Origin: Spongilla lacustris
Lineage: Eukaryota; Porifera; Demospongiae; Spongillida; Spongillidae
NCBI GenBank assembly: GCA_949361645.1
Contig: OX442417.1
Coordinates: 9,578,815 to 9,642,814, forward strand
DNA: 64,000 nucleotides
Direction: 5' to 3'
The notes beneath the pieces were generated by a model that was not told where the DNA came from, searched no databases, and was given only the letters and a program-made list of their open reading frames with translations. Below are positions 1,625 to 46,552 of this stretch, piece after piece. Within the stretch, counting starts at the first letter, position 1; the number at the start of each line of letters is the position of its first letter. The position numbers and the translations under genes were made by a program.

Positions 1625-2701
1625 AATTTAGGTGGAGTGAAGCGGGGAGGGATTCGAAGCCGTATATTGCGTATACTACGAAACAGTCGATGAAAACACC
1701 ATAGTTCTATCCCTTGTTGTTACATCTAAGGTCCAGACTTTTTAAAAGCCTTCGCTCACCCATGTTTTAGTACAAAAGGCAGGTACTAATTCGAAGCCGC
1801 TGGTGTTCGTTCCCGCTTTCCTTTCAATTAAAAACCAACGCTCGGGTCATAGCTCTATGCTACTAGAGCATATTGGTACTCGGAGCGTGTAACCGTGCGA
1901 CACATACTGGTTTTCTATATGTGTGCATATATATATGCACTTGGCGGTTAACCCGAATTAATTTTTAGTATATATATATGCACTGGCGTCTGGCGGTCAA
2001 AGAGTTAAATAAATATACACTAAAATCTCACATTTAGTGGTTGTAATAACTTAGGTAAGTTGGAATTATTAACATCAAACAAATGCAGCATGTGAATTAA
2101 TATCAAATGGGGATCTTTAATGTTAAGCTTCTCTATTTAATAATGTATTGTTTGTGGTTAATTTATTAAACATCCTGTACATGTACATGGTGTACAATTT
2201 GCATAACGTACAAACACACAACATCAATAACAAACCACAGCCTCTTCAGTGGGCAGGAGGTCATGATCTTTATTAATGATTCAATACTTCCATCTCCTAC
2301 ATTGGTGTTATACAGACTGGAGGGGTTCAGACAAGTGTGTGGAGACATAAAAGTTCTAATTGGCATGACATCATTTGGCCCATACATGTACTAGTACACA
2401 TTCAGTAAAATACATACTAAAGGCTTGTGAAAAACATGTACATCTGTAAGCGTATAGATAAATGCAGTTGTACAGTTACATTTGGACGATGATGTTTATC
2501 CTACACCAGACCTCTAGCCCTTAACATGCCTGCTGGTCACCCTTTGCTGGTTATTAAAGCAACATCTTTATGGTCTGCTCATGGTACACCAGTGTGCATG
2601 GCTTGGTAAGGAACATTTGAGCACACAAGTCAATATGACTACCTACATTTCAAGTATACATTACCGAGATGACCAAAGGCAACACTCACAATGATACTTA
2701 C
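1625..2701. other. Non-coding interval, nothing recognised
   Basis: No open frame, exon or repeat could be supported. It contains short TATATATGCAC repeats near 1925-1985 and ACATGTACATG motifs. Confidence 0.5.
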
Positions 2702-2785
2702 TACAGTTCTTGCAGATTGGACATATGAGGGGCTGCTTTTGAAAGTCCTTCAATGCCTGAATCTCCAATATTATTACTACCAAAG
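2702..2785 (-). CDS. LRR-encoding exon (84 bp, phase 2), NLR-type
   Basis: On the minus strand a TCTCCCTACAG acceptor precedes an 84-bp open segment, followed by the donor GTAAGT. Read in phase 2 it gives FGSNNIGDSGIEGLSK then AAPHMSNLQEL, a 28-residue ribonuclease-inhibitor-type leucine-rich repeat (pattern LxxLxFxxNNIGDxGI). It is the most divergent intact member of a family with relatives at 20.2, 30.5 and 35.0 kb: it has E-G-L where the others have A-S-F at exon positions 12-14. LRRs of this type form the C-terminal sensing half of NLR receptors. Whether this exon is still spliced to the receptor body at 38-46 kb, 32 kb upstream on the same strand, or belongs to another, possibly dead, paralogue cannot be decided here. 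Confidence 0.75.
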
Positions 2786-10272: not shown

Positions 10273-10431
10273 GTATTTGTACTATATCAGTGGGACCCCT
10301 TAATGACATAACTGCCCCAAGTCTGATTAGTGACAACATCAAACACTACACAAACCTAAAAGTAAAACAGTTGGATGTTACAAGAACTTGAATATGCATG
10401 TTGTCTATCCTTGCACAAAACACACTTACAT

Positions 10432-20229: not shown

Positions 20230-20313
20230 CTCAGGCGTTGGAGATTGGACATATGAGGGGCTGCTTTGGAAAACGATGCAATGCCTGAATCTCCAATATT
20301 ATTAAAACCAAAG
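20230..20313 (-). CDS. LRR-encoding exon (84 bp, phase 2), NLR-type
   Basis: Minus-strand exon between a TCTCCATACAG acceptor and a GTAAGTATC donor. In phase 2 it encodes FGFNNIGDSGIASFSK then AAPHMSNLQRL plus a split codon, one 28-residue ribonuclease-inhibitor-type LRR. Codons 4-25 are identical base for base to the exons at 30.5 and 35.0 kb. Codons 2, 3, 26 and the split codon differ. Because all these exons begin and end in phase 2, any number can be spliced in tandem without breaking the frame. It could be a distal exon of the receptor at 34.97-46.55 kb or part of a duplicated partial copy. Transcription is unproven. Confidence 0.8.
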
Positions 20314-20552
20314 CTGTATGGAGAAGCAAAACAATGCAGCAGATCTCAGCTACAGATGATAATTCTATTGTAATGGTTAGAATACATGTGTACAGACCAT
20401 ACCAAAGACCACACCTTCCATGTACATGGACATACTAAACAACATCTACACCTACAAGCATATCACATTATGCTTGTAACAGGATAGGTCATGTATGGCA
20501 AAGGTCTGTTAATGGTATTCCAAACACAACCTATATACATAAACCCCTCCCC

Positions 20553-20742
20553 TTCACATGCAAGACAACTATTGCCCCCTCCCCCTCACACCCAGGACAA
20601 CTATTGCCCCTCCCCCTCACACCCAGGACCACTATTGGCCCCTCCCTCTCAAACCCAGGACAACTATTGCCCCTCCGCCTCACACCCAGGACAACTATTG
20701 CCCCTCCCCCTCACACCCAGGACCACTATTGGCCCCTCCACT
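20553..20742. repeat. 31-bp minisatellite, copy 1
   Basis: About six copies of a CCTCCCCCTCACACCCAGGA + CAACTATTGCC unit. The same unit occurs at 24.88-24.98 and 30.80-31.02 kb in the related blocks. Confidence 0.9.
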
Positions 20743-20811
20743 CTCAGGCACAGGAAGAACAGATGTTTTTACCCCCGTAACTTTAATGAAAAACAGAACC
20801 TGGGAACGAGG

Positions 20812-20849
<38 letters not shown>

Positions 20850-20935
20850 ACACACATCACACACACACACACACACACACAACACACACACACACACACA
20901 CACTCTCACATACACACATACACACACATATCATA
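20812..20935. repeat. (CA)n microsatellite
   Basis: CA-dominated tract with TACACA and CTCACA interruptions, at a conserved place in the LRR block just after CTTTAATGAAAAACAGAACC. Confidence 0.95.
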
Positions 20936-21270
20936 TACAGCACATCTCCTAACCCTTAGAGGTCATGTAGTGTTTATTGCTACATGTACATCTACTAGCT
21001 CAAGGATGCACATACATGTACATGTACAGCGTGTTTCACAGTCAAGGAAAATTATTTATTAACATTTAAACAACACACTCCTCCTTGCACAACACTTACA
21101 CCTGCAGGAATCATCAAACAAACCCCAGGCTGGGAATATGATATTTTTTCCTGTAAAAGACACAAACAGAAACCTCCATGCAGAAAGATATGTATATGAG
21201 AAACCCGAGATAAAGAATAGAGCATAACCATGCACAACACTTACACCATGATGCAGGCAAAGCTGAATGA

Positions 21271-21273
21271 CAT

Positions 21274-21318
<45 letters not shown>

Positions 21319-21335
21319 CGCACACACACACACAC
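21271..21335. repeat. (CA)n microsatellite
   Basis: CA tract adjoining the left arm of the 21.34-22.09 kb foldback. Confidence 0.95.
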
Positions 21336-21344
21336 CACCCTCAT

Positions 21345-22088
21345 CCCCAAGCCCTGCCTTTTTTAAAGCTACTGTGGGGGTGTGAAAAACAGGGCCTGTT
21401 ATACACTGCCAGGGTACTAGTGTGCATGCACTAGTCATTACCTGAAAACCTGTATACTTTTGTAATTTTTATTTGTAAAACTTTCCTTACGCAATCTCAT
21501 TCTCAGCGTGAACTCTTCCTCGTCCCAGACTGTCATACATGTAGAGTTTCATATGTCAACTTAGTACCCTTGCTCCTTGGACCAAGTTCTTACCTCTACG
21601 ATTGGTGCGTGTAGGCTGGCAACCTCACACCTACTTGCCATTTCTAGCCGAAGGTACAATGCTGACAACCTACTTGTACTCTCGTGGTGTGCAGACATTG
21701 ACAAAGGCCTTTTCCATCGATACCAGACTCCTTCTCGTCACCAAAGTTTGTGTAGGGTACATGTAGTTCCAATGTGTGCACACCATGAGGGTACAAGTAG
21801 GTTGTCAGCATTGTACCTTTGGCTAAAAATGGCAAGTAGGTGTGAGGTTGCCAGCCTACACGTACCAATCGTAGAGGCAACGTACAAAACTCTTCTAGTA
21901 CGACAGTTTGGGACAAGGAAGAGTTTACGCTGAAAACAAGATGGTGTACGGAAAGTTTTACAAAAAAAAAGTATACGTTTACCAGGTTTTCAGGTAATGG
22001 CTAGCACATGCGCACTAGGACCATGGCAGTGTATACCAGGCCCTGTTTTTACCCCTGTAACTTTAATAAAAATAGGGTATGGAGATGA
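21345..22088. repeat. ~740-bp foldback (inverted repeat)
   Basis: The left arm (21,345-about 21,690) and right arm (about 21,780-22,088) are inverted copies, with landmarks CAGGGCCTGTTATACACTGC / its partner at about 22,027 and GGTACAATGCTGACAACCTA / its partner at about 21,795. The outer end (TTACCCCTGTAACTTTAAT) is the segment that precedes the (CA)n tract in each LRR block, so the arms are built from block DNA. The central 90 bp is unpaired. Open frames in it mirror each other and are not credible genes. Confidence 0.7.
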
Positions 22089-22553
22089 GGTTAGCACACC
22101 CACACCCCCCCCACACACACAAATTTATAATCATATACAGCACATGCATCTCCTAACCCTTAGAGGTCATGGAGTGTTTGTTGCTACATGTACATCTACT
22201 AGCTCAAGGATGCACATACATGTACAGAGTGTTTCACATGTACATGTAGCTCAAGGATCAAGGGTGATGTGGATTATAGATTTGATCTTCTTACACTTTT
22301 TGTAATTTCCCTAATGAACATGATACACTTAAGATGGTGCTAGAGAAACAGTTCTAACTACTAACAAGAAATAAATATAAATGTAATTTCCCTAATGTAC
22401 AACATGTTGTACATACATGTACATGTAGATGATAGATACGTATGCAGTGATGTACATGTACTTAGTATAGTACATGTAGGTGATGATGTAAGTGCACATA
22501 ACAAAGATTCATATATATCCTTCATTAACACGAATGATGAATGGACAGGAGGG
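22089..22553. other. Block-derived spacer
   Basis: Contains the CTCCTAACCCTTAGAGGTCAT segment found after the (CA)n tract in the LRR blocks and many ACATGTACATG motifs. No gene. Confidence 0.55.
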
Positions 22554-23199
22554 TATGTTGAGTGGAGGGAGGGTATATTGAGTGGAGGGAGGGTATGTTG
22601 AGTGGAGGGGAGGGTATGTTGAGTGGACGGAGGGTATGTTGAGTGGAGGGAGGGTATGTTGAGTGGAGGGAGGGTATGTTGAGTGGAGGGAGGGTATGCT
22701 GAGTGGAGGGTAGGGTATGTTGAGTGGAGGGTAGGGTATGTTGAGTGGAGGGAGGGTATGTTGAGTGGAGGGAGGGTATGTTGAGTGGAGGGAGGGTATG
22801 TTGAGTGGAGGGAGGGTATGTTGAGTGGAGGGAGGGTATGTTGAGTGGAGGGAGGGTATGTTGAGTGGAGGGAGGGTATGTTGAGTGGAGGGAGGGTATG
22901 TTGAGTGGGAGGGAGGGTATGTTGAGTGGAGGGAGGGTATGTTGAGTGGAGGGGAGGGTATGTTGAGTGGAGGGGAGGGTATGTTGAGTGGAGGGGAGGG
23001 TATGTTGAGTGGAGGGAGGGTATGTTGAGTGGAGGGGGAGGGAAAGGTATGTTGAGTGGAGGGGGGGTGGTATGTTGAGTGGAGGGGAGGGTATGTTCAG
23101 TGGAGGGGAGGGTATGTTGAGTGGAGGGGAGGGTATGTTGAGTGGAGGGGGAGGGTATGTTGAGTGGAGGGGGACGGTATGTTGAGTGGAGGGAAGGGG
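22554..23199. repeat. 20/21-bp minisatellite, array 3
   Basis: About 31 units of TATGTTGAGTGGAGGGAGGG (20 bp), with 21-bp forms towards the right end. The 20-bp unit is a one-G deletion of the unit in arrays 1 and 2, and the downstream flank is shared with array 2. Frames of up to 247 codons are artefacts. Confidence 0.9.
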
Positions 23200-23307
23200 T
23201 ACTTGCACAATATCAGTGGGACCCCTTAATGACATAACAGTCCCAAGTCTGATTAGAGGCATCATCAAACACTACACAAACCTAAAAGTAAAACACACAC
23301 ACACACA

Positions 23308-23342
<35 letters not shown>

Positions 23343-24016
23343 CCACAATGACTTGGGCCACACACTGGTGAATGTCTGATGACACACATAGGTAGCCATG
23401 TCTTTGACACACTACAGTACAATAGAGCTGCACAGCCAACACACAAAAGGTTATTCCATAACACAGCATAATGGAGTGGACTACATGTATGTATGCTGCA
23501 CCAATGGTCATGTGATCTGGGAAGGAGGGTAGGTACCATGGGAGGCATGTGGCAGTCCTGAGCCGTGTTATGCATACATGTAGCCTCCCACCTCCATCAT
23601 TTCTACATTCAACGTACAGGCAGGTGTGCATCTATTGGAATGTTGATGGGTATATGGTGTTAGAGAATGTTGAGAAAGAAGGTACATGTAGATAAAGAAG
23701 GTAGGTATAAGAAGTGCAACCTTTGGTGTGTTAAAAGGTTCATGTACCAGGGAATAGGGAAGACATCAAATAGACAAATAGACATGTCCATAGGCAAACA
23801 TTGGTAGACACTATGTAGGTGATGTCATGACATGTACCCTGCACAATGACCTCATATGTTTGACATATTACCACAGTACATAGACCACAATCACATGTTG
23901 TATATTTGTCATCTAACCACACACTATGTCCCCTAGCAACCATTTGCATAACTTAATAACTACCATTCATATCCCATAAGTACCACTTCCCAGATCACAC
24001 TCACAGTGATACTTAC
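23200..24016. other. Block-derived spacer with (CA)n tract
   Basis: Array flank homologous to 10.27-10.38 kb, then a (CA)n tract at 23,294-23,339, then sequence containing GTACAGGCAGGTGTGCATCT, which is shared with the LRR blocks (19.15, 26.54 and 34.03 kb). It is a diverged partial block. No gene was recognised. Confidence 0.5.
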
Positions 24017-24041
24017 AACAGTTCTTGTAGATTGGACATAT
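24017..24041 (-). pseudogene. Truncated LRR exon
   Basis: Only the 3' third of the LRR exon remains on the minus strand: codons for MSNLQEL plus the split TT, followed by the conserved GTAAGTATCACTGT donor context. Directly upstream, at 24,042, the sequence changes to unrelated DNA containing GATAACGCGCTAAAG, so the front half and acceptor are lost. It marks a broken LRR block. Confidence 0.7.
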
Positions 24042-25369
24042 CTTTAGCGCGTTATCCTGACTGTAGTGGACAAATTAAGTACGCTTTATGTTGAAGAGCA
24101 ATCCTCTAGGCTATCTTGCCTGAAAAGGCATTGGTACCACATCTAAACCATGATCTTCCTCCAAGGCAAAATTCACAACCCAGAAAGCTGTTACAGTACA
24201 TACCAGAAGGAATGAATTTCCTAATGAGCCAACCATCATCAGTGCCATAGTGAGAGTTTTCTCCTTACTGAACAACATGTTCAATGACCAGCAAGCTAAC
24301 TCCTTACAGGATTATGTTGAAGCTGCAGTAATGCTTAGATATAATCATTTTCTGCATAACATAACTTTAGGTCTGAGGTATTGATATCTGTAATATGCTA
24401 CAAAATATGCAATGCTAAAACAAAGGGGATTGATTTACGTGAACCTCAATATGCATGTACATGTAAGTTGAAAAAAGTATCCGAATTCTGTTCCGAATGA
24501 TAACCATAGACAAACCGCCATGGATATTCGAATGCCAGGGTTAAAAAAAGCCTTTACCGCTGAAGCCTATCTCCACTCAACATTACCCAAGGTAACTGTA
24601 CCATATCTGGGGGACCCCCACAATGACCTAACCCTCTCAAGTGAAAATTAGCGAAAACAGAAAAATAAAACAGTATTGGATGTTACAATCCTTGAATATG
24701 CATGCTGTCTGATCTTGCACATGCATGCACACACCACACACACACATACACACACACATATGCAAAGACCCACCGTGACTAGGGCCCCACACTGGTTAAT
24801 GTCTGATCATGCACATGGGTAGCCATCACACCAAAGGTTATCACATAACACAGCATAATAGAGTAGTCTATCACACATACCTCCCTCTCACACCCAAAAC
24901 AACTATTGCCCCTCCCCCTCACACCCAGGACAATTATTGCCCCTCCCCTTCACACCCAGGACAATTATTGACTCTCCCCCTCTCAGGAGATATTGTACCA
25001 ACCAACCCCAGCCCTTCTGCATTCACAGGTCCTCCTTCATTGCGAGACCAGATTGGCAAAAGGCATCAATTGTATTCACAACATTTAGGTCATAACTGAT
25101 ATTGATAGACACCTGGGACTGGACCTTCAAACATGTCATAATAGAGTAGTGTATCACACACATATGTACAGGGGAACTATCCCTCCTCCCCCTTGAATGT
25201 AGCATAATACACATGTACATGTGTACATGTACAGGGTGTTTCAGAGCCAATGAAATTAACCAAAAGCAGTTGATTAACTAGTAAGTGTTGTTAAAAGTTC
25301 TAACAGCTAAGGAACAGATGTTTTTACCCCCGTAACTTTAATGAAAAACAGAACCTGGCAACGAGGCTA

Positions 25370-25400
<31 letters not shown>

Positions 25401-25959
25401 CCACACACACATAGTTATAATCATATACACCACATCTCCTAACCCTTAGAGGTCATGGAGTGTTTGTTGCTACATGTACATCTACTAGCTCAAGGATGCA
25501 CATACATGTACAGAGTGTTTCACAGTCAAGGAAAATTGTTTATAAATTAACCACAAGCAGTTAATTAACTGGTAATTGTTGTTAAAAGTTCTAAAAGACA
25601 TGCTGGTGAAATAAACTTAATATAATCTTGAATGGTAATTAATGTTTCAAAACTCCTATTCATCTCAATAGTTAATAAATGCAGGATGGGTGGTTAGTTA
25701 AATAAAAAATTGATTTTTTTGTTTCACAATGAACTTGATTAGAAGGCATTGTTTCTTGATTTGGTGGTTTGCATTTATTAATAATTTCAGTCAAGTTGAT
25801 ATTATTAATATTGGAGCTTTTGGAAGCCTCTAAAATAGTATGCTTCTACTGATTAGGTGTCATCAAGAATTATTAATTCATTTTCGTTAATTGTAAACTC
25901 ATTGATTTTGGTTAATTAGTATTTAGTTATTTAAGCCCACGTTATTAGAGCATTTATCA
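24042..25959. other. Broken block and spacer
   Basis: 24,042-24,580 is unrecognised DNA at the truncation point. It is followed by fragments of block DNA: a copy of the array-3 flank at 24.60-24.74 kb, the 31-bp minisatellite at 24,881-24,981 (about three units), (CA)n at 25,371-25,410, and the TTAGAGGTCATGGAGTGTTT segment at 25,447. The rest is AT-rich with no exon. Confidence 0.5.
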
Positions 25960-26999
25960 ACAATTTAACTGTTCGTGCTTATTTATAAACAATTTTCCTT
26001 GATTGTGAAACACCCTGTGTATATGCTCCAGTGTTGTATGTAAAGGAAGGCTTGGAACAACTGGCTGTAAAATGTATGAGCTATGATTGTAGTATGTATA
26101 TCATTCAGAGGGGATTGTATGTACATGTACATGTACAGCTAATCTAGTGGTCAGTTACACAATGAAGAAATCCAATGACTGATCGATTGCAAAAAAGTGT
26201 AATGATGCAGGTTTCACTAACAGTGTCAAAAGTGTTTGGAATTCTACAAACTTTATTAACCTACAAGTATGTTACCATTTGGAAGACTTTGGGCTACTGT
26301 ATGGCACTTTTGCTACCGTGGTGATGTAGAATACAAATGTACATGCATACATTATACTATGACTATACGAAACCACACCTTCTTTGCACATGGATACATG
26401 TGTATAGTCATAAATATCTATAGATACTGGAATATCACACCATGCTTGTAACATGATAAGTCATGTATGACAAAAGTCTGTACATGTACATACAGAAGGG
26501 AGGGGCATTCCCAACACAACAAATGTACATATAACCTCCTATGTACAGGCAGGTGTGCATCTATTAGGAAGGTGTATATGTAGAGTGCAGAAAGGCATAA
26601 ACTTCCAAAAGAACTTCTCCTAATGACATAGAAATGGAAAAAAATATGCATAGCAACCATATATGAGTTGATCATTATTTTATAATGAGCACTGTGAAAA
26701 ATAAAGTATTTATTTTTTATCATGCTAGGCAATTGTAACTAAGTAATAACCAATTATAAACTGAATCTTAGCTCTATAAATTGTATTAAATAATTTTATT
26801 CATATCAATGCTGCGTCCCACAAGTGTTCAGTTTGTGTTCACAAAAACTCTTCGACAAAGGAGTCGCTTTTTTATATTAGGAACAAAACTTATGGGACAT
26901 AGCGCTGAGCTATTAAACTATGCACATTTGAACATTTTCTACTTGCGTGTGAGCTCCAGGAATATGCCAAACCAATCTAAGCGACAGAGTAAGTAACGC

Positions 27000-28455
27000 G
27001 AAGTGCTTGAGGCTAAACGAGCCAAGCTGAGTTCTGATGATGCTGAAACATTGGAAGATGATGCAATAAATGAGCATGTTCATAAATGGGTTTCTACCTT
27101 GCATAGAGATGACGAAAATGTCTTTTACGCTTCTCCTGCATGTAATCCTTGTTTCCAAACTCAATTTGGAGTAAGTTAAAGCATCAGAGCTCATTGGGTC
27201 CATGGTTGGTGTTAGTGAACAGTTAGAGGGTGGGAGAGCTACTTTTTATCTAATGGTAATACTTTTCCAGGCTCGCAGCAAGGAAAGTACCATAGAGCTG
27301 GGGTGCTGTGGAAGGATGAAGAGTTAAACCATAATGCCAGAGCTTATGTGACAGAAAATGCAAATCCTAAAGGAAGACCTAACATGAGTGCACTCTCTTT
27401 TTGTGCATGGGTGAACGATGACCTTCTATCAAAAAAATACCCTTTCCCCTGGATTCCCTCGACGAATAAGCATTCCAACTGCTCAGAAGTGGCTGCATGA
27501 ATTGGGATTTGAAGTACTCAATACACAAGGGAAGTCCATGTAGATAGACGGTCATGAAAGGGAAGATGTAGTGGAGTATCGGAAGGTTTTGTTGGCAGAA
27601 TGGCAGAAATTGGATTTCTGAACAAAGGCAACGCTCCCACTCCAGAAGCAGCAAAATACATCACATATTCCAGTCACACAGAGCAACAAAAGAACACTGT
27701 CATATTCCATGATGAATCTATATTCACAGTGAATAATGACCAGAAGACTCCATGGGGAACTAAAGACATGTTGGTGATTAACCCAAGAAAAAGGGATCAG
27801 GAATTGTGGTCTCAGACTTTGTAGATGAGCATAATGGATATCTTTGTTTTGTAGATTGTGATGGAAGAAAACATGAAGCACGGGTTCTGATGGAGTATGC
27901 ATGGAGCTAACAATGAAGGCTACTGGACAAATGATAAGATCTTCAACAGATGGAAAAGGCTGCTAAAATTGCTGATTTAAAGTATCCTAAGAGTGAGGGG
28001 TACAAAATCACATGGATATTTTACAATAGCAGCTGTCACAATGCATATTCTCATGATGCACTAGTTGCCATGCACATGAATGCCAAATGTGGAGGAAAGC
28101 AACCTTGCATTAGGGATACCATGTGGAAAGGAAAGGTACAGAAGCTTGTTAATAATCAAGGAATTCCTAAAGGGCTTATTCAAGTTCTGAAGGAAAGGGG
28201 GAAGTATAGGGACACAATGAAGCTGGCTGAGATGAGAGAGGAAATTACCACTCATCAGGACTTCAAAAACGAAAAGACGAGGGTTCAACACTTTCTGCAT
28301 CAACATGGCCACACATGCATACTGCTACCAAAATTTCATTGAGGGCTTAACCCTATAGAGAGATGCTGGGGGCAGGCAAAGCGGTATACAAGAGCTCACA
28401 CCAACTACACTCTTCCTTGGTTGCATCTAATTATACCGCAAGCCCCGGACTAAGT
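27000..28455 (+). pseudogene. DDE transposase, Tc1/mariner-like (DDE_3 type)
   Basis: Reading the three plus frames in pieces gives a recognisable order. A VTENANPKGRPNMSALSFC segment (27,350) is followed by IDGHEREDVVEYRK (about 27,543), the first catalytic Asp in FHDESIFTVNNDQ (about 27,708), the second block WIFYNSSCHNAYSHDAL (about 28,012), PKGLIQVLKERGKY, and finally NPIERCWGQAKRYTRAH, which holds the catalytic Glu (about 28,350). In the second block a Tyr stands where this family normally has Asp (F-D-N/Q-S-S), so even a repaired reading frame would lack a catalytic residue. Several stops and frameshifts are present. The enzyme would have cut and pasted the surrounding element at TA sites. 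Confidence 0.8.
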
Positions 28456-28572
28456 CAATCCTCAACTTATCCAAAAATACTTCAGAGAAGCTTAGAAGGT
28501 CACTGTCCTGGCAAAGAACTAGAAAAAATAACTTAAATCAACAAGTCACACAGAAGAGTTGGAACACACCAA

Positions 28573-29234
28573 CAGAGCTGTGACGAATGGGACTCACAAC
28601 TAATTCAGCTAGAAAAGAATTGCAACAAAATCCGCTAATTCAGCTAACCAAACTTGAAAACCGCTACTTTTCCGCTGGTTCCGCTACCTTCCTCCTCCAA
28701 CAGTCATTGTCAACATCCCAAAAAATTAATAAGTTAAATTTCGTGTCTTGCGAATGTAACTCAATAATAATTAGTACTCCGCACGAATCGAATCAGTGTT
28801 TCTAAATTGCTGCATGCAAGTTCAAATATGCAGCGATCGAACTTGACACAAGATTGGAGTTCGAATTGGGATTCGAGACGGGCTGCCTGAAATAGCTTGT
28901 TCGAGTTCGAATTCGTCGAATCTAATCGAATTAAATTTGACCCCTACTCAATATATCGCTAAAAATTGGAGTGTTGGACCAATTTCATGCACTTGATCAT
29001 ATAATTGGCGGGCATTTTTAAAAATACAAAAATTTCTAATCAACAATAACAAATATTGATTGGTCCCAATTTGGTCGTTGTAATTGAAGTTGAATTGGAT
29101 TTGTGAATTAGCGGAAGTAGCGATTTTCAGAGCATGCCGCTAGTGGGCAATCATTGGCAGCTATTTTCGCTAACAAAAATTTCCTGCTCACGTCCGCTAG
29201 ATTCGCTAGTAGACGCCGCCATGTCGCAGCTCTG
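28573..29234. mobile_element. hAT-type non-autonomous element, 662 bp
   Basis: The ends are CAGAGCTGTGACG and, reversed, CAGAGCTGCGACATG. A perfect 8-bp target duplication, CACACCAA, flanks it (28,565-28,572 and 29,235-29,242). Eight-base duplications and CAG-type ends are hallmarks of the hAT superfamily. Subterminal inverted matches (CGCTAATTCAGC-like and GAATTAGCGGAAGTAGCG) occur inside. There is no transposase. It is nested in the Tc1/mariner-like transposon. Confidence 0.8.
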
Positions 29235-29481
29235 CACACCAATGATTTTATTCATGTGCATTTTCTTTAATAAATACTGCTTTGAAAAAACTCTGTAACT
29301 TGATTGTACCATGACTTTACTGTATGGAATTTCATAGTTTGTTTTTTTATCATACTGCATTTAGAACTTGAAGCGTTTTCTACAGACATACATTTTCCTG
29401 CTTTTTTGAAGTTTATACCTTTCTGCACTCTAGGTAGCTCACTCTCCTTGTACAGAGAGGATAATTATTAATGTGGCCTCC

Positions 29482-29889
29482 AGTAAAACAGATCAGTACA
29501 GAGAGAGACCTTCCATTGTTGTGGCTATGACAGGGACAGAGACCTGTCCAGTGAGCATGATGGAAAGGTATTTCACAATAGGTGGCTTATCTCATACATC
29601 ACAGGGGAGGGTGTTTATGGGAATATCTAAGACCAAGATAGACCAGAAACTGCTAAAAGATGGGGGAGCTGAGCTATTCTAGAGCACGTGAGATTTTGGG
29701 ACCCATCACAGTTTGGGATGCACAGACTTAGGGCAGGTGGTGCCACAGCTGCTGCCAATGCAGGTGTACATAAGTACCTGACTGGTTGTTTAAGGGGCAT
29801 GGCCGCTGGAGGTTAGAGACAGCTAAGGATGTATATGTTAAGGATTTGGTTGAAAAGCATCTGGAGGTGTCCAAACACCTGGCCTGTAA
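29482..29889 (+). pseudogene. Tyrosine recombinase C-terminal fragment, copy 2
   Basis: This is the same remnant as at 19.2 kb. It contains RYFTIGGLSHTSQGRVF, then GISKTKIDQKLLKDG, the HSLRAGG-type segment with a one-base change (ACAGACTTAGGGCAGG), and KGHGRWRLETAKD with the HGRW box. The final Gly-Leu-stop is disrupted by a single-base loss (HLACK). At position 29,837 a TTG replaces the GCA seen in the other copies. It is clearly inactive. Confidence 0.7.
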
Positions 29890-30477
29890 GTACTCATGGC
29901 TTTCTATGTGACTCCATGTTGGGAGCCCACATGGCTTTTCCCATAACATGTGCCTGTAAAATATTGACTGAGCCCCCTGCTCAGCTTTGTGTCTTGTGTT
30001 GTTTGTGGTACTGTGATATGTGATGCCATGGATACATGTATGTGATTATGGTAGCAGTTAGGGTACATGTGTAAGTCTGACTGTAGTGAGTGTGTTATGC
30101 TTGGTGTTGGTCCATGTACATGTGTACAGTCTATCATGTGCATATTATTCAGTTGGTGTGCACAGGCCAGGCTGCAATAATGGTCATCTACTATTCTCAG
30201 GGATCCTGTGTTAAAGCAACTCTGTGTGTGCATGTGTGTACATGTGTGTAGTGAGGTCAGTTGTAATAATGCCGGTGTGCAAACCAACATAGCAGTGTAC
30301 CTACATGTGTACAAGGTAACAGCCCCTCTCCTTTGTACCATGACCACGCCCTCCCACCAGCCCACCATGTACCCCACCTCCATGCTTATAACTGGTGGTG
30401 CAGAAGGCACAGATGGTGCAGAATTAACACCCATATATCCCACAATTACCAAAAAGAACACTAACAATGATACTTAC

Positions 30478-30561
30478 CCCAGGGCTTGGAGATTGGACAT
30501 ATGAGGGGCTGCTTTGGAAAACGATGCAATGCCTGAATCTCCAATATTATTATCACTAAAG
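30478..30561 (-). CDS. LRR-encoding exon (84 bp, phase 2), NLR-type
   Basis: Minus-strand exon with a TTCCTACAG acceptor and GTAAGTATC donor. Phase-2 translation gives FSDNNIGDSGIASFSK then AAPHMSNLQAL plus a split codon starting GG. Codons 4-25 are base-for-base identical to the exons at 20.2 and 35.0 kb. Only exposed beta-strand positions (codon 2, codon 3, codon 26 and the split codon) change. The 28-residue length and symmetric phase match the other LRR exons of the locus. It sits about 4.4 kb (minus sense) after the 34.97-kb exon, so it could be spliced onto the same receptor. Confidence 0.8.
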
Positions 30562-30802
30562 CTGTAGGAAGAAACAAAACATGCAACAGATGTCAGCTAC
30601 AGATGATAATTCTATTGTAATGGTTAGAATACATGTGTACAGACCATACCAAAGACCACACCTTCTATGCACATGGATATACTAAACAACATCTACACAT
30701 ACAAGCATATCACATCATGCTTGTAACAGGATAGGTCATGTATGGCAAAGGTCTGTTGATGGTATTCCAAACACAATCTATATACATAAACCCCTCCCCT
30801 TC

Positions 30803-31018
30803 ACATGCAAGACAACTATTGCCCCTCCCCCTCACACCCAGGACAACTATTGCCCCTCCCCCTCACACCCGGGACAACTATTGCCCCTCCCCCTCACACC
30901 CGGGACAACTATCGCCCCTCCCCCTAACACCCAGGACAACTATTGCCCCTCCCCCTCACACCCAGGACAACTATTGCCCCACCCCCTCACACCCAGGACC
31001 ACTATTGCCCCTCCCACT
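30803..31018. repeat. 31-bp minisatellite, copy 2
   Basis: About seven units of the same CCTCCCCCTCACACCCAGGA + CAACTATTGCC repeat as at 20.55 kb, one unit longer. Confidence 0.9.
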
Positions 31019-31125
31019 CTCAGGAGATATTGTACCAACCAACCCCAGCCCTTCTGCAGGCACAGGAAGAACAGATGTTTTTACCCCCGTAACTTTAATG
31101 AAAAACAGAACCTGGGAATGAGGCT

Positions 31126-31273
31126 GCACACACACACACATACACACACATACACACACACACACATACACACACACACATACACACACACATACACACA
31201 CACACATACACACACACACATACACACACACATCACACAACACACACACTCACATACACACACACACACACAT
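31126..31273. repeat. (CA)n microsatellite
   Basis: CA tract with a regular TACACACACA sub-pattern, at the conserved block position after CTTTAATGAAAAACAGAACC. Confidence 0.95.
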
Positions 31274-31492
31274 AGTTATAATCATATACACCACATCTCC
31301 TAACCCTTAGAGGTCATGGAGTGTTTGCTGCTACATGTACATCTACTAGCTCAAGGATGCACATACATGTACATTGATTTTGGCTAATTAGTATTTAGTT
31401 ACATCAGCCACCAGCACTATATCCACGGCTGTTTCGAGATGGACATTAGGTTGTTAATTAGAAAACATATGTACATGTATATTACAGTACAG

Positions 31493-33309
31493 TTCTTATC
31501 CGTGTCCCATAGGAGCTCATTAAAATGTGGTTAATGTTCTAATCCCTATTTTGTGAAGATGCGTTTACCATAACATACCAGTATATTTTTTAGCTGTTCT
31601 ATATTCAGTTGGGCACTACAAAACGTCAATGCGCACTATTGAGGGATGTTTTTTTATTAGCCCACTAAAGTCGCACATCTCACGGTTTCTTTGTTTTTGT
31701 TTTGGCATTCCTGAAGCACTCGAACGGCAAGCCGTTTTCCTCGAGAAAATGCCTGAGAAAAGGGTGTAAAATGCACCTTATTGTAAAGATAGAGCATTGC
31801 CTGTTTTAAACATGCCTAGCTTATGTGCAGACTTATTTTCTGAAGCGAGAACAAAACCCTTTACCCTGGACTAGCGAATCATGAATAAAGCGGTATCACG
31901 TGCGCTCATGCTGCAATAGAAGCGAATGGAAATTTCTTCATGTCAAGTGCAATACAGTGAGTATGGTATACTGGGCCTTTTATGCAGACAAAAAAATAGT
32001 CTCGAGGCAATCTAGAGACAATCTACAGCTGTGCTAGTGGAACTACTGCTTCCCGCTAATTTCTACAAACGAAGGCTTGAAAAGGAGGTTGGGAGGATAA
32101 AAGTGTTAATGGGAGGAGGAAGGTGCTAATCCTTTCATCCCAGGGCACTATAATATACAGTTCAGCATAGTAAGCCCCACCCCTCTAGCGATAATGGTTC
32201 CCCTTGCTACCACGCCCACCTCAGTTTTCACCCTCTTCATGTTGGGGAGTCAGGCATACCTGCTAATGTGTTTGGCGAGCTCTACAGGTTTATTTCCTTT
32301 TTCCTGCAATGAGACATGGCTATAGCCTATCTACACAATACAAGTGAGTGGAGCAAGTCATGTGACTAGAGCTCGTGATGGTGTATTGTTGAGAGTGTAT
32401 ATCCCACAAGCCACATGTCCTTGTGTTTTGGCCTACATCCACACCCTCTTGTTCCCTCTCCCCTTGCCTTCCTCACTCTCCCTTCCCTTCTTTCCTTCCT
32501 CCCTCTCCTTCCCTCTAGCTCCTCCTCCCTTCCTCTCTCTCAGCCTCCCTCCCCATCCCTCCCTTCTGCCCTCCCTTCCTCCCTCCATTCCTCCCCTCCC
32601 TTCCTCCCTCCTCCTCCCTCCCTCCTCCTCCCTCTCTCCTTCCCTCTCCCCTCCCTCCATCCCTTGTTCACTTATTTTCTTGCTCAATTTGATTATTTCG
32701 TTTGCGTAAGTCTATGTGTTGTGTTTATTTTACTCGTACATGGTCTTTAAGCTGTAGAGGTTTCTGCATGCCTCATGGGGACTCTGTGTTACATGTGTGG
32801 GATGTGTAGAGGCATGGTTGTACATGTGTTGTTTTCATGGTAATGATGCTGTCATATACAATGTAGTGGTATCAAAGGTCAAACTATGTGACCACTCTCC
32901 ATGTAGCACACTACTGACACAACTCAGCACACCTCATCACATTTTCCATCAGCCAGGTGGTGAACCAACCTATATGAACATGGTCCCCTCTAGATACTAA
33001 CAGCCTGACTATCATGTGAGCAGCTTCATTGTCATGGCTACAACTTGTAATGACTCTTCTCTTGTACAGATTGGCTCCACCCACTTGCACCTCTACCCCT
33101 GCCACTAAGCTGCACTCAGTATACCATTTGTTCTTTGCCTCAGAAACAATTCATCCCATGCAGGCACTGTCTACGTACTTCAGTTTACTGCCACAGGGCC
33201 GGATACAATTAAAGCTCCAATGTTGTTGTCCAGCTGTTTACTTGAGAGATCACAGTAATCCATCACCCCTATTTGAAGTGTGCATAATCAACCATCTACA
33301 TACAATGAT
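31493..33309. repeat. Segmental duplication A, copy 2 (empty-site copy)
   Basis: Pairs with 13,144-17,791. At 31,953-31,954 the single TA is the uninterrupted version of the site occupied by the palindromic element in copy 1. A CT-rich tract lies at 32,445-32,668. Differences are scattered single bases and short indels. No gene was recognised. Confidence 0.85.
32445..32668. repeat. Polypyrimidine (CT-rich) tract, copy 2
   Basis: Nearly pure C/T for about 220 bp, homologous to 16,945-17,157 but with altered repeat counts. Confidence 0.9.
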
Positions 33310-34112
33310 GAAAGCAAAAATTACTGTTCGTGCTAAATTTATAAACAATTTTCCTTGATTGTGAAACACCCTGTGTATATGCTCCAGTGTACAGTATGTT
33401 GTATGTAAAGGAAGGCTTGGTACAACTGGCTGTAAAATGTATGAGCTATGATTGTAGTATGTATATCATTCAGAAGGGATTGTACATACATGTACATGTA
33501 CAGCTAATCTAGTGGTCAGTTACACAATGAAGAAATCCAATGACTGATCGATTGCAAAAAAGTGTAATGTTGCAGGTTTCAAAAAGTTTTCCTAACAGTG
33601 TCAAAAGTTAATAACCGCAATTCTACAAACTTTATTAACCTACAAGTATGTTACCATTTGGAAGACTTGGGGCTACTGTAGTATGGCACTTTTTGTTACC
33701 ATGGTGATGTAGGTGGAGTTAACAGCACTACACATCAGTGACATTCTGACAAGCCTACAACCTACACGTGCACTTAATAATTGGGACAGATGTCAGCTAC
33801 AGATGATAATGGTTAGAATACAAATGTACATGCATACATTATACTATGACTATACCAAACCACACCTTCTTTGCACATGGATACATGTGTATAGTCATAA
33901 ATATCTACAGGTACTGGAATATCACACCACGCTTGTAACATGATAAGTCATGTATGACAAAGGTCTGTACATGTACATACAGAAGGGAGGGGCATTCCCA
34001 ACACAACATATGTACATATGGCCTCCTATGTACAGGCAGGTGTGCATCTATTAGGAAGGTGTACATGTAGGTAGGTCACTCTTTTTACAGAGAGGATGAC
34101 TATTAATGTGGT

Positions 34113-34383
34113 CTCCAGTAAAACAGATCAGTACAGGGAGGGGGACCTTCCATTGTTGTGGCTAGGACAGGGACAGAGACCTGTCCAGTGAGCATGTTGG
34201 AAAGGTATTTCACAATGGGTGGCTTATCTCATACATCACAGGGGAGGGTGTTTAGGGTGTACACAAGTACCTTACTGGTTGTTTAAGTGGCATGGCCGCT
34301 GGAGGTTAGAGACAGCTAAGGATGCATATGTTAAGGATTCAGTTGAAAAGCATCTGGAGGTGTCCAAACACCTGGGTCTGTAA
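34113..34383 (+). pseudogene. Tyrosine recombinase fragment, copy 3 (internally deleted)
   Basis: Same remnant as at 19.2 and 29.5 kb but lacking about 145 bp: the sequence jumps from GGGAGGGTGTTTAGG to TGTACACAAGTACC, removing the segment with the HSLR box. The later part, with HGRWRLETAKDAYVKD and the terminal VSKHLGL-stop (34,381-34,383), is kept. Confidence 0.65.
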
Positions 34384-34969
34384 GTACTCATGGCTTTCTA
34401 TGTGACTCCATGTTGGGAGTCCACATGGCTTTTCCCATAACATGTGCCTGTAAAATATTGATTGAGCCCCCTGTTCAGCCCTGTGTGTTGTGTTGTTTGT
34501 GGTACTGTGATATGTGATGCCATGGATACATGTATGTGATTATGGTAGCAGTTAGGGTACATGTATAAGTCTGATTGTAGTGTGTGTTATGCTTGGTGTT
34601 GGTCCATGTACATGTGTACAGTGTATGGTGTGCATATTATTCAGTTGGTGTGCACAGGCCAGGCTACACCAATGGTCATCTACTATTCTCAGGGATCCTG
34701 TGTTAAAACAACTCTGTGTGTGCATGTGTGTACATGTGGGTAGTGAGGTCAGTTGTAATGATGCTGGCGTGCAAATCAACCTAGCAGCCTACCTACATGT
34801 GTATAAGGTAACAGCCCCTCTCCTTTGTACCATGACCACACCCTCCCACCAGCCCACCATGTACCCCACCTCCATGCTTATAACTGGTGGTACAGAAGGC
34901 ACAGATGGTGCAGAATTAACACACATATATCCCACAATTACCAAAAAGAACACTAACAGTGATACTTAC

Positions 34970-35053
34970 CTCAGGGTTTGGAGATTGGACATATGAGGGG
35001 CTGCTTTGGAAAACGATGCAATGCCTGAATCTCCAATATTATTATAACTAAAG
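34970..35053 (-). CDS. LRR-encoding exon (84 bp, phase 2) of the NLR gene
   Basis: Minus-strand exon between a TCCCTACAG acceptor and GTAAGTATC donor. It encodes FSYNNIGDSGIASFSK then AAPHMSNLQTL plus a split AG, a 28-residue ribonuclease-inhibitor-type LRR. The previous LRR exon (35,452-35,541) ends in phase 2 with AA, so joining completes an Asn codon and the frame continues. It is the closest member of the amplified LRR exon family to the NACHT exon and very probably part of the same transcript. In such receptors the LRRs form the curved ligand-sensing or autoinhibitory domain. Confidence 0.82.
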
Positions 35054-35451
35054 CTGTAGGGAGAAGCAAAACAATGCAGCAGATGTCAGCTACAGAAGAT
35101 AATTCTATTGTAATGGTTAGAATACATGTGTACAGTCCATACCAAAGACCACACCTTCTATGTACATGGATATACCAAACAACATCTACACATACAAGTG
35201 TATCACATCATGCTTGTAACAGGTAAGGTCATGTATGGCAAAAGTCTGTTGATGGTATTCCAAACACAACCACCCCCACCCTGATACAACATTGAATACT
35301 AGGAGCAGTTGTAGCATAATGCCGGGTAATCACAATCCCTAGGAAAACCCACCAAACACATCAGGGACATAAAGGAACTTGAACTGTGTGTGTTGTGTAG
35401 TGTACCCCACCTCCATGCTTATAACCAGCTGGCAATACACATGGTACCTAC

Positions 35452-38201: not shown

Positions 38202-39807
38202 CATAATCTTGTAACTTTATTCAATGTAACAGACGTGGGTTTTTGCGTGATAATATCCAGTCCCTCAGTAGCTAGTTGACACTCCAATGTGATACAGGTT
38301 ACAATGTCACTTGCAATGGCCAGACAATGTCCTATTGCACAATAATCAGTCAAAGTTAATGTCTCATTTCTAATTGCTAGCTCCCCTTCAGCTTTACTGA
38401 ACAGTTCTTTGCACCTATGCCTGTTTTGAGACTCAAATATGCAATGTAATGCATTGAGGTTAACCTTCTTTTCAAATGAATACTGTCCCAGTAGTGCATT
38501 GTCCAATACTGCCTCCCATTGTTCAACATTTTCAAGCTTTGTCAAGCCACAATAGAACTTTAAGACCACACCCATATGAGGGCTTACTGAGTGCTCCTTA
38601 ACAGCTGCAAGCTGCTCCTCAGAACAAAGTGTACTCATGTAGTAGGCAGCCAAGAACTCCTGGTTGGTCAGGTGGGGAAAACTGTATGAAGGTTCTGAAG
38701 ACCTGATACCTTCCTTTTTGTCCACTATCATTAGTCCTAATGTATCCACTTCAGTGGAAATAGCAGTGTCCCCCACCATATCGTATTGTGACACATCAGT
38801 CCCTGAAGCAACAGTCCTATTGTAGGCCAACTTGCATACCTTTTTAAATACAGCAGCTTCAGGCTCAGGCACCCACCATAATTCAACTATTTCTTGATCA
38901 ATTCCTTTCTTGTCATAATATCGTCGCAGAGTCATGATGGTAAACTGAGTGTATACTTCAGTTTCAGTTTTGGGCAGTGGTGTGGAGGCTTTACGATTGT
39001 CATATAGAAAGATAACCATGACAAGATGAAGTGGAAGGTAGCACATATGTCTTATGCTTTGGTGCTCTTTGAGGTATGCTTTCACCTCTCCTGCTTTGGT
39101 GATGTCATCTGAATAGCTTCTATCTATGTACTCCATGACATGCTGCTCCAGGAATCCAAGCACTTCAGCTCTGATTGTGACACTCTTCCTGAGGTCAATA
39201 GAAGCATTGGGCCTGGAGGTTATGAAGATCAGTGATCTTTGAAGTTTTTCTCCTCTGAGAAATTGTTCAAACCAGGAGCTTCCTGATGTTGTGAATGAGG
39301 CAGAGTACTCATCTAACTCATCAAATATGAAGCAGATATCTTTGCCAAAGCTAATGTTTATATCACTTGCCAATCTTTGCATATCAAAAGAGTCTAAAAT
39401 GGTGTTGAGGTCTTGAATTGGTGTTGAATAAAATTTACGAAGAGAAACAAAGAAAAGATATTTCACTGTGCCTAGAATCTTTCCTTCACTCCAATCTCTG
39501 CTCAGCTTCTTCACTAATGTGGTCTTTCCACATCCTGGCCTTCCTTCTAGTAGTATTCTGGTACCAGGTTTAACATTTTGTATTTCTCCAAACAATGTAT
39601 CATAGTCCACTGCTTCTTTTGTTTCAATGATGTCATCTGCAGATCCTCGAATAGTTTCCAAATAAAATTTGTGTTTCTGAGGATGTTGTTCTGTTGTATC
39701 TTTAATTAGTGCTAGATTGATGAAAGTGAACTTTGGAACAGGAGGCCAGTCTGGTGCCACTGGATTTTGCCTTGAGTACATATCTTTTAAAGCCTCTTGA
39801 CAATCAT
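38202..39807 (-). CDS. NACHT-domain exon of an NLR-type innate immune receptor
   Basis: A single 1,606-bp exon encodes about 535 residues of a NACHT-type STAND ATPase. Counting from the Met upstream of the acceptor (39,832), Walker A is GRPGCGKTT at 97-105, Walker B is ICFIFDELDEY at 166-176, and a sensor-like TSRP lies at 205-208. The conserved Pro/Leu motif YLPLHL is at 265-270, PKTETEVYTQF at 287-297, and the winged-helix motif FPHLTNQEFLAAYY at 385-398. The first eight codons of that frame are intron; the acceptor TCTCTTCAG places the true exon start at 39,807 in phase 1. The exon ends at 38,202 (GTAAGT donor, phase 2). NACHT proteins bind ATP/dATP and oligomerise to signal in innate immunity. 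All key nucleotide-binding residues are present, so this exon looks intact and functional. Confidence 0.93.
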
Positions 39808-45646: not shown

Positions 45647-45922
45647 GTTGGTACATTGGACAATAGGTAGTTCTTATTTCTTCTGCCAGTACTGATTTGC
45701 CAGTTGACTTGAGGGCATCAATGAGCTTCTTCCAGGAGCATGATACATATGACTGCAACCAGAACTGTACTAGAGCATATCTGCACTCTGCCACCTGCCC
45801 TCGGTTATTAACATCAATCTCATCTATCTTTGGAGCACTGATATCCAATTGCACTCCTAGTGACTTCCATTCCACCACATCTTTTAAAGCATTCACCACA
45901 TTTTTAAGTGTGAATGTTGGAT
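45647..45922 (-). CDS. DEATH-domain exon of the NLR gene
   Basis: A 276-bp minus-strand exon (acceptor TTTTCTGTAG, donor GTAAGC, phase 1 at both ends) encoding 92 residues. The segment WKSLGVQLDI, then EIDVNNRGQVAECRYALVQFW, then SWKKLIDALKSTGKSVLAEEI has the pattern of a DEATH domain: the helix-1 Trp-Lys-x-Leu-Gly, a central Leu-Val-x-Phe-Trp helix and the C-terminal Trp-x-x-Leu-Ile-Ala/Asp-Ala-Leu motif. DEATH domains recruit partner death-fold adaptors. Placed N-terminal to NACHT and LRR, it gives the classic NLR signalling layout. The phase-1 start is completed by the single G left by the 2A-leader exon, making Asp. Confidence 0.85.
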
Positions 45923-46059: not shown

Positions 46060-46552
46060 CTTCACCTAGAGGTCCGGGGTTCACCTCTACATCTCCGGAT
46101 AATAAAATTAGTAGCTGCCGTAGCCACACCATGGATATTATCAAAGTCAGTGCATTTACAACCTTTCCAGCTGCTCCGCTCATGTGACCAGCACAGTGAT
46201 GTGGTTTATACGTTTGCTGCGATGGGAGGCAAACACTGATCAAATATATCAGTTGGCAAAATCTAAGTACATGTACTAGAACACACACCTCATTTGGCCC
46301 GTGTGGTTTACCAACCAGTTCAACACTGACGTCCAACCACTTTTCATCGTTCTCAACGCACAAAGATATTCTGACGATTACGTATTTGAGTTTCTCGAGG
46401 TAAGAACCTCTATCGGATACCTTGCAGACATCATTTCTTCTCCACTTTCGCATCACGTTGGCTGGACTATGCTTCTTGTCACCACAGCTAACGTTTCTAC
46501 GGCTAACAAACGTCCTGATCCTTGCCCTGTAGGTAGCTAGGTCGACTCCCAT
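46060..46552 (-). CDS. Leader exon of the NLR gene, ending in a 2A-like peptide
   Basis: Minus-strand frame ending at a strong donor (GAAG/GTAAG) in phase 1. Near its end is LLILLSGDVEVNPGP, a match to the 2A consensus D-V/I-E-x-N-P-G-P, in which the ribosome skips the Gly-Pro bond (Gly 46,073-46,075; Pro 46,070-46,072). Three starts are possible: Met at 46,132 gives a 20-residue hydrophobic leader (MVWLRQLLILLSG...), Met at 46,183 a 37-residue one, and Met at 46,552 a 160-residue product beginning MGVDLATYRAR. N-terminal 2A leaders that double as signal sequences are known in sea urchin NLRs, which favours the short forms. An intron within 46,183-46,290 is also possible. If skipping fails, the hydrophobic leader would send the receptor to the secretory route; if it works, the receptor stays cytosolic. 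Confidence 0.75.

What the first reader, a model, noticed from the sequence alone, without database searches (positions are those of the whole stretch)
20230..35053. LRR exons identical in the scaffold but different only at exposed beta-strand codons
Exons 20,230-20,313, 30,478-30,561 and 34,970-35,053 are identical over codons 4-25 (66 nt). All differences fall in codon 2 (GGT/AGT/AGT), codon 3 (TTT/GAT/TAT), codon 26 (CGC/GCC/ACC) and the split last codon (AG/GG/AG). All the changes alter amino acids where assignable, and there are no silent ones. In the LxxLxFxxNNIG pattern these are the solvent-exposed concave-face positions. The introns around them show scattered changes, so the scaffold is conserved while the recognition surface varies. 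This suggests strong diversifying selection, or targeted gene conversion, on a sensing surface.
Basis: partly seen in the sequence, partly recalled or inferred. Interest (0 to 1): 0.9.

Follow-up and report, generated by a model that had tools for sequence, protein, structure and literature searches.

The report
Sponge NLRs with hypervariable repeat exons
In what is likely a sponge genome, genes of the NOD-like receptor type (likely immune sensors) carry near-identical repeat exons that differ almost only at four amino-acid positions predicted to lie on the receptor's inner binding face, so selection has likely kept the frame fixed while diversifying what each receptor would recognise.

Summary
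The three exons differ only at codons 2, 3, 26 and the split codon 28. They are LRR exons of a predicted 2A-leader/Death/NACHT/LRR gene at window 2,166-46,552 (minus strand), which has a fourth LRR exon at 2,702-2,785.

The pattern held out of sample. In another NLR cluster (44 exons used of 46 found) the same four codons are the most variable of 28: nucleotide diversity is 0.455 in those 11 nt and 0.013 in the other 73. Silent change is nearly absent there (3 of 498 same-residue pairs). Four exons with identical introns over 234-237 aligned nt differ pairwise at 2-6 of the 11 nt. Genes with NACHT silent difference 0.64 share repeat scaffolds at 0.019. In that cluster, then, scaffolds are homogenised between genes while the predicted concave codons are diversified.

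Brown-algal ROCO LRR exons show the same four positions and intron phase, and fungal NLR repeats the same principle. My searches listed no such report for animal NLRs, but lists were capped and subscription journals are missing. Ligand recognition is inferred. New variant of a known kind.

The parts
34970..35053 (-). LRR exon 1 of the window gene (84 nt, phase 2); variable codons 2, 3, 26 and split 28 = AGT, TAT, ACC, AG
30478..30561 (-). LRR exon 2; variable codons AGT, GAT, GCC, GG
20230..20313 (-). LRR exon 3; variable codons GGT, TTT, CGC, AG
2702..2785 (-).
2166..2316 (-). predicted terminal exon with a last LRR-like segment (LYNTNVGDGSIESL...) and stop codon; similar exons end the sister genes
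38202..39807 (-). NACHT exon (Pfam PF05729, E 1.5e-20); predicted to end in phase 2 and to join LRR exon 1 in register
45647..45922 (-). predicted Death-domain exon (Pfam PF00531, E 5.3e-6); boundaries from splice signals only
46060..46552 (-). predicted leader exon, MGVDLATYRARIR... to ...GDVEVNPGPLGE; 2A-like motif at 46071-46096
35054..35213 (-). intron flank upstream of LRR exon 1, part of the duplicated unit shared with exons 2 and 3 (about 95% identical)

Best explanation
These are single-repeat LRR exons of tandem NACHT-LRR genes in which the repeat scaffold is nearly constant while four codons, predicted to lie on the concave face, differ almost only by amino-acid replacements and are likely under diversifying selection for what the receptor would bind. 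Shown: LRR units with their introns are duplicated inside the window gene; in the 17-18 Mb cluster the scaffold is shared between genes with far-diverged NACHT exons; there the variable codons are largely decoupled from the flanking introns; and codon 2-3 blocks recur in units with different introns more often than in shuffles. Inferred: short gene-conversion tracts homogenise the scaffold and pass codon blocks between exons, and selection keeps exons of one gene different. The exons are 84 nt and flanked by phase-2 introns, so units can be gained, lost or exchanged without breaking the repeat register, and each strand combines codons 26 and 28 of one exon with codons 2 and 3 of the next. Not tested: expression, ligands, variation between individuals.
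For: Exact trio and intron yardstick. Same four codons top of 28 in 44 exons of another cluster; diversity 0.455 against 0.013. Codon 3 is NNT in 44 of 44; 3 of 498 same-residue pairs use different codons. Variable-site difference 0.36 in 18 pairs with intron difference under 0.005 and 0.48 in 503 pairs over 0.2. 16 gene pairs: NACHT silent difference 0.642, scaffold silent difference 0.0186, variable sites 0.451. Codons 2 and 3 associated (z 6.0), codons across the 66-nt scaffold z 0.1-2.2. Codon 2-3 block recurs in units with introns over 10% different in 28 of 44 exons, shuffles 18.4 sd 3.0. No identical variable-codon set in 79 pairs within 30 kb; 4 in 867 other pairs. NACHT exons keep pN below pS (ratio of means 0.25 and 0.38). 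Same positions vary in repeats of related proteins, most clearly P0124.
Against: No conversion tract was mapped directly; the largest of 500 shuffles also reached 28. Variable codons keep a weak association with introns (Mantel r 0.18, P 0.001; codon 3 with upstream intron type z 3.9). Nei-Gojobori pS at the variable codons is not near zero (0.22, 0.30, 0.12 in the three clusters), partly because multi-step paths are averaged over few sites. The 14.5 Mb cluster has replacement differences in the scaffold too (pN 0.080, pS 0.059) and codon 28 nearly fixed. Window cluster: no sign of homogenisation between genes. Only one assembly, no RNA, no population data. Gene membership of 33 exons is by position.
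Confidence: 0.78

Rival explanations
1. Duplication plus point mutation under diversifying selection, without gene conversion: units were copied recently with their introns and each copy then gained its own replacements.
For: It suffices for the window trio: introns about 5% apart, 7 changes in 11 nt, 0 in 73. In the window cluster scaffold and NACHT silent divergence agree.
Against: In the 17-18 Mb cluster scaffolds are about 35 times less diverged at silent sites than the NACHT exons of the same genes, intron diversity falls sharply towards the exon, and identical codon 2-3 blocks sit in units with different introns.
Confidence: 0.15
2. A targeted mutator (hypermutation or template-driven) writes diversity into these codons.
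For: Variable-site difference is near its ceiling even between exons with identical introns.
Against: Base 3 of codon 3 is invariant in 44 of 44 exons next to two nearly saturated bases, and silent variants at codons 2, 3 and 26 are nearly absent (3 of 498); a blind mutator would leave silent changes too.
Confidence: 0.04
3. Relaxed constraint: exposed positions tolerate change and drift at the neutral rate while the scaffold is under purifying selection.
For: The positions are exposed in this kind of repeat (recalled; predicted strand).
Against: Variable sites changed far more than the introns beside them: 7 against 0.78 expected in the window trio, 0.36 against 0.003 in the closest 18 pairs.
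Confidence: 0.02

Closest known systems
LRR exons of brown-algal ROCO GTPases (PMC11378527, passages seen; the earlier Zambounis 2012 paper was not held)
   Same: One LRR per exon, exons in phase 2, exon shuffling, and four positively selected sites (14, 16, 18, 19: spacing +2, +2, +1) placed on the concave face. The spacing equals that of codons 26, 28, 2, 3 here.
   Different: 72-bp exons of a 23-24 residue repeat in ROCO proteins of algae; here 84-nt exons of a 28-residue repeat in NACHT proteins of an animal. Alternative splicing is reported there and untested here.
Fungal NLRs with high internal conservation (het-d/het-e WD40, also ANK and TPR; PMC12222747 and PMC4986451, passages seen)
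   Same: NLR-type receptor; repeats kept alike by concerted evolution; diversifying selection at a few positions of each repeat.
   Different: WD, ANK or TPR repeats; the 2014 survey found no LRR in fungal NLRs. Here LRRs, one per exon.
Tetrahymena 90-bp phase-2 LRR exon arrays (PMC6564038, passages seen)
   Same: Fixed-length phase-2 LRR exons in tandem, ectopic recombination between exons.
   Different: Not NLRs; the text has 0 occurrences of 'positive selection' and 'concave'.
Zebrafish NLR-B30.2 family (PMC4852459, passages seen)
   Same: Large animal NLR family shaped by gene conversion and positive selection.
   Different: There the B30.2 domain is the diversified part and the LRRs are called not particularly variable; here the LRRs are.
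NLR repertoire of the sponge Dysidea avara (PMC12909245, passages seen)
   Same: Many NACHT+LRR genes in a sponge, including Death-NACHT-LRR genes.
   Different: The text has 0 occurrences of 'selection', 'exon' and 'tandem', so repeat exons were not analysed in that way.

Membership tests
NLR (NACHT-LRR) receptors | NACHT domain | tested here: met
   PF05729, E 1.5e-20, above its cut-off
NLR (NACHT-LRR) receptors | C-terminal leucine-rich repeats | tested here: met
   three joined window repeats match PF13516, E 1.9e-12; joined to the NACHT exon in frame by predicted splicing only
NLR (NACHT-LRR) receptors | N-terminal effector domain | tested here: met
   PF00531 Death, E 5.3e-6; same gene inferred from order and from E. 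muelleri Death-NACHT proteins
NLR (NACHT-LRR) receptors | immune or danger sensing | not testable with these tools
   no expression or functional data
LRR exon-shuffling receptors (brown-algal ROCO kind, as a mode of evolution) | one LRR per exon of fixed length, phase-2 introns | tested here: met
   84 nt, phase 2 in 10 of 11 window-cluster exons (D1 is 90 nt) and in 44 of 46 exons of the 17-18 Mb class
LRR exon-shuffling receptors (brown-algal ROCO kind, as a mode of evolution) | four diversified sites with spacing +2, +2, +1 on the strand face | tested here: met
   codons 26, 28, 2, 3 are the four most variable of 28; concave side predicted, not measured
LRR exon-shuffling receptors (brown-algal ROCO kind, as a mode of evolution) | ROC-COR GTPase domains | tested here: not met
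   the exon carries NACHT, no ROC or COR match in the Pfam scan, so it is not a ROCO gene
LRR exon-shuffling receptors (brown-algal ROCO kind, as a mode of evolution) | alternative splicing of repeat exons | not testable with these tools
   no RNA data
NLRs with high internal conservation (fungal kind, as a mode of evolution) | repeats kept alike by concerted evolution | tested here: met
   17-18 Mb cluster: scaffold pS 0.0186 where NACHT pS is 0.642; not shown between genes of the window cluster
NLRs with high internal conservation (fungal kind, as a mode of evolution) | polymorphism between individuals | not tested
   one assembly only
Lamprey-type variable lymphocyte receptors | somatic assembly of LRR cassettes | not testable with these tools
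   one assembly, no tissue or clone data; the window gene already has an unbroken predicted exon order

The most novel reading that the evidence does not exclude
Sponges run a modular recognition code in their NLRs: a fixed 84-nt LRR exon serves as frame, and exon-confined gene conversion swaps two-codon cassettes (2-3 and 26-28) among dozens of exons in several genes, so that individuals, or even somatic cells, hold different concave surfaces. It would be an animal counterpart of brown-algal LRR shuffling and of fungal NLR repeats, reached independently with the same four positions and intron phase.
Probability: 0.3. Interest if true: 0.88.

Novelty: new variant of a known kind. Interest (0 to 1): 0.72.

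Why it matters
How animals without antibodies could achieve specific recognition is an open question. In the zebrafish NLR-B30.2 family the LRRs were judged not to be the variable part. Here an animal, likely a sponge, appears to use the LRRs as the diversified surface, with the variation confined to four codons per exon. That makes specificity directly testable: the candidate contact residues are named, can be read per individual from long reads, and natural arrays that differ only there can be compared in binding assays. The match in positions and intron phase with brown-algal ROCO exons points to a convergent solution.

Tried and rejected
Relaxed constraint and an untargeted mutation hotspot: rejected. 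The window trio alone: 'no silent change' is weak by itself, because about 17 silent sites and 3.6-5.3% intron difference predict under one silent change per pair; hence the move to the 44-exon cluster. A tree-based codon model was not run because the exons seem to exchange parts; counts and shuffles were used. The first NACHT comparison included non-coding 5' extensions of the open frames; it was repeated on 260 trimmed residues.

Rows dropped before counts: exon D1 (C3:9480895, really 90 nt). Of the 58 exons, 46 belong to the 17-18 Mb class (44 on contig C1, 2 at C3:10.01 Mb) and 12 to the 14.5 Mb class. L061 (no in-frame donor) and L075 (scaffold altered, frame not found) were not used, leaving 44; L077 was not used, leaving 11. 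One search uses the 33 of 44 exons that lie near one of the eight sampled NACHT exons. C15 copies were seen, not analysed. The fourth cluster (20 exons) was read by eye only. The LRR_6 search scored 150 of 300 candidates and served only to find that cluster. Counts from whole-genome searches are lower bounds, as the tool states. One search looked at 13 proteins picked by me from the 120 listed (131 found).
Full report
What was checked. The three exons are as described. They read on the minus strand between AG and GTAAGT, flanked by phase-2 introns. The 7 minimal changes all lie in codons 2, 3, 26 and the split codon 28. The next LRR exon begins with C each time, so the split codon reads AGC, GGC, AGC and every difference is a replacement. 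The intron flanks of the three copies need 46 changes in 645 aligned nt. At that rate the 11 variable nt should carry 0.78 changes and carry 7 (P 1.8e-5); the other 73 nt should carry 5.2 and carry 0 (P 0.0055).

What it is. The genome is a eukaryote of 248.6 Mb in 51 contigs; the window is C3:9,578,815-9,642,814. The predicted window gene has a leader exon ending near GDVEVNPGP (46,060-46,552), a Death exon (45,647-45,922), a NACHT exon (38,202-39,807), four LRR exons (34,970; 30,478; 20,230; 2,702) and a terminal exon (2,166-2,316). The boundaries come from splice signals and homology, not RNA. Three sister NACHT genes lie beside it with 2, 3 and 2 such LRR exons, 11 in all. The closest hit of the NACHT exon that bears an organism name is a Death-NACHT protein of the freshwater sponge Ephydatia muelleri, 57% identical (P0013; twelve unnamed hits score higher). 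The organism is therefore likely a sponge. At least 80 NACHT matches were found genome-wide.

Where the variable codons sit. In LxxLxLxxN numbering they are positions 3 (codon 26), 5 (split codon), 7 and 8 (codons 2 and 3 of the next exon). In the AlphaFold model of P0124, a related NACHT-LRR protein from an unnamed source (mean pLDDT 80; best PDB matches NLRP3 and NOD2), the strand covers positions 3-5 in 10 of 10 motif-matched repeats. Positions 3 and 5 flank core residue 4 and should face the concave side; 7 and 8 follow directly. That these positions face the ligand side is recalled knowledge of ribonuclease-inhibitor-like LRRs (best PDB sequence match of the window repeats: a ribonuclease inhibitor). 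It was not measured, since no coordinates were at hand. P0124's own ten repeats vary most at 3, 5, 8 and 7. Of 13 hand-picked related proteins, 7 have at least three of the four positions among their six most variable; position 10 is often added, and P0231 and P0233 vary throughout.

Out-of-sample test. A whole-genome protein search found 58 exons of a second kind: 46 at C1:17.38-18.55 Mb and C3:10.01 Mb, 12 at C1:14.50-14.74 Mb. Of the 46, 44 were usable. Codons 3, 2, 26 and 28 are the four most variable of 28, with 10, 10, 9 and 6 states; the next codon is far behind (entropy 0.42 against 2.08 or more). Diversity is 0.455 in the 11 nt and 0.013 in the 73 nt. Codon 3 is NNT in 44 of 44 exons. 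Of 498 pairs sharing a residue at codon 2, 3 or 26, 3 use different codons. The 14.5 Mb class (11 of 12 used) fits only in part: codons 2 and 3 vary, codon 26 moderately, codon 28 is AA in 10 of 11, and the scaffold has replacements too. A fourth cluster (20 exons fetched, read by eye) has two repeats per exon in most reads and differs mainly at positions 5, 7 and 8.

Decoupling from the flanks. Variable-site difference hardly follows intron distance: 0.36 in 18 pairs under 0.005, 0.48 in 503 pairs over 0.2. Four exons from four gene clusters have identical introns over 234-237 aligned nt, at most one scaffold difference, and 2-6 variable-site differences; one further pair with identical introns is identical at the variable codons as well. 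A weak association with introns remains (Mantel r 0.18, P 0.001).

Homogenised scaffold. The eight sampled NACHT exons of the cluster fall into two groups. For the 16 gene pairs with silent difference above 0.4 the means are NACHT 0.642, scaffold 0.0186, variable sites 0.451. One gene (L117) has a somewhat more distant scaffold (0.056-0.069). Intron diversity rises from 0.015 and 0.009 in the 20 nt beside the exon to 0.28-0.50 upstream and 0.30-0.38 downstream at 80-119 nt, so the shared unit is the exon with a short flank. In the window cluster the scaffold pS (0.150) is about that of NACHT (0.131); there I claim only duplication within the gene plus selection.

Exchange of blocks. Codons 2 and 3 are strongly associated (z 6.0); pairs across the 66-nt scaffold give z 1.7, 1.1, 0.1 and 2.2; codons 26 and 28 give 2.4; upstream and downstream intron types give 8.4. 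In 28 of 44 exons the codon 2-3 block recurs in a unit with introns over 10% different (500 shuffles: mean 18.4, sd 3.0, largest 28). Forty of 44 four-codon sets are distinct. None of 79 exon pairs within 30 kb shares a set, 4 of 867 other pairs do. This fits short conversion tracts plus selection for difference; no tract was mapped.

Constraint elsewhere. NACHT exons keep replacement below silent difference (ratio of means 0.38 for eight genes of the 17-18 Mb cluster, 0.25 for the four window-cluster genes), so the genes look functional and the excess of replacements is confined to the repeats. In the window cluster (10 exons) pN/pS is 0.551/0.124 at the four codons and 0.078/0.150 elsewhere.

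Literature. Brown-algal ROCO genes: one LRR per 72-bp phase-2 exon, exon shuffling, four positively selected concave sites with the same spacing (PMC11378527, passages). Fungal NLRs: repeats kept alike by concerted evolution with diversifying selection at a few positions (PMC12222747, PMC4986451, passages). Tetrahymena: 90-bp phase-2 LRR exons (PMC6564038, passages). Zebrafish NLR-B30.2: LRRs not particularly variable (PMC4852459, passages). Sponge Dysidea: NLR expansion, no occurrence of 'selection' or 'exon' (PMC12909245). Ten searches listed no report of this pattern in animal NLRs, judged by titles and abstract starts in capped lists of an open-access library. Subscription papers, such as the Amphimedon NLR paper cited in these texts, were not seen, so priority cannot be claimed firmly.

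Verdict. Shown: the pattern, its replication in a second cluster and in part in a third, its decoupling from introns, and the shared scaffold of the 17-18 Mb cluster. Inferred: diversifying selection as cause, conversion as route, ligand recognition as purpose.

Noticed in passing
window 46,071-46,096 (-) and genome-wide: A 2A-like recoding motif (GDVEVNPGP) ends the predicted leader exon. The DNA pattern has 48 exact matches in the genome and 0 of its reversed control. One lies 5-12 kb upstream of each of the 4 NACHT exons of the window cluster and 7-27 kb upstream of each of the 8 sampled NACHT exons at C1:17.4-18.6 Mb. E. muelleri NLR proteins share it. Known for sea-urchin NLRs (PMC4981915, passages; 'sponge' 0 hits).
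   Followed up: partly
L118-L137 (C1:7.3-9.1 Mb): A further NLR cluster whose exons mostly read LTSLxLxxCGL...NTTLTSLDLSxNKFDDQSIASLGK, again differing mainly at strand-face positions.
   Followed up: partly
P0124 (relative, source not named): NACHT protein with ten LRRs in one open frame whose repeats vary most at positions 3, 5, 8 and 7, so the pattern is not limited to one-repeat exons.
   Followed up: partly
C3:9,480,895 (exon D1): A sister-gene LRR exon seems to be 90 nt, with two extra codons at the strand-loop region, so repeat length is not fully fixed.
   Followed up: no
window 48,743-49,629 and 50,012-50,548 (-): Open frames of 167-184 residues of unknown kind; the two scanned had no Pfam match above cut-off.
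   Followed up: no
window 9,538-10,279; 22,534-23,198; 47,621-48,494: Long minisatellites; the first two share one unit and lie inside introns of the NLR gene.
   Followed up: no
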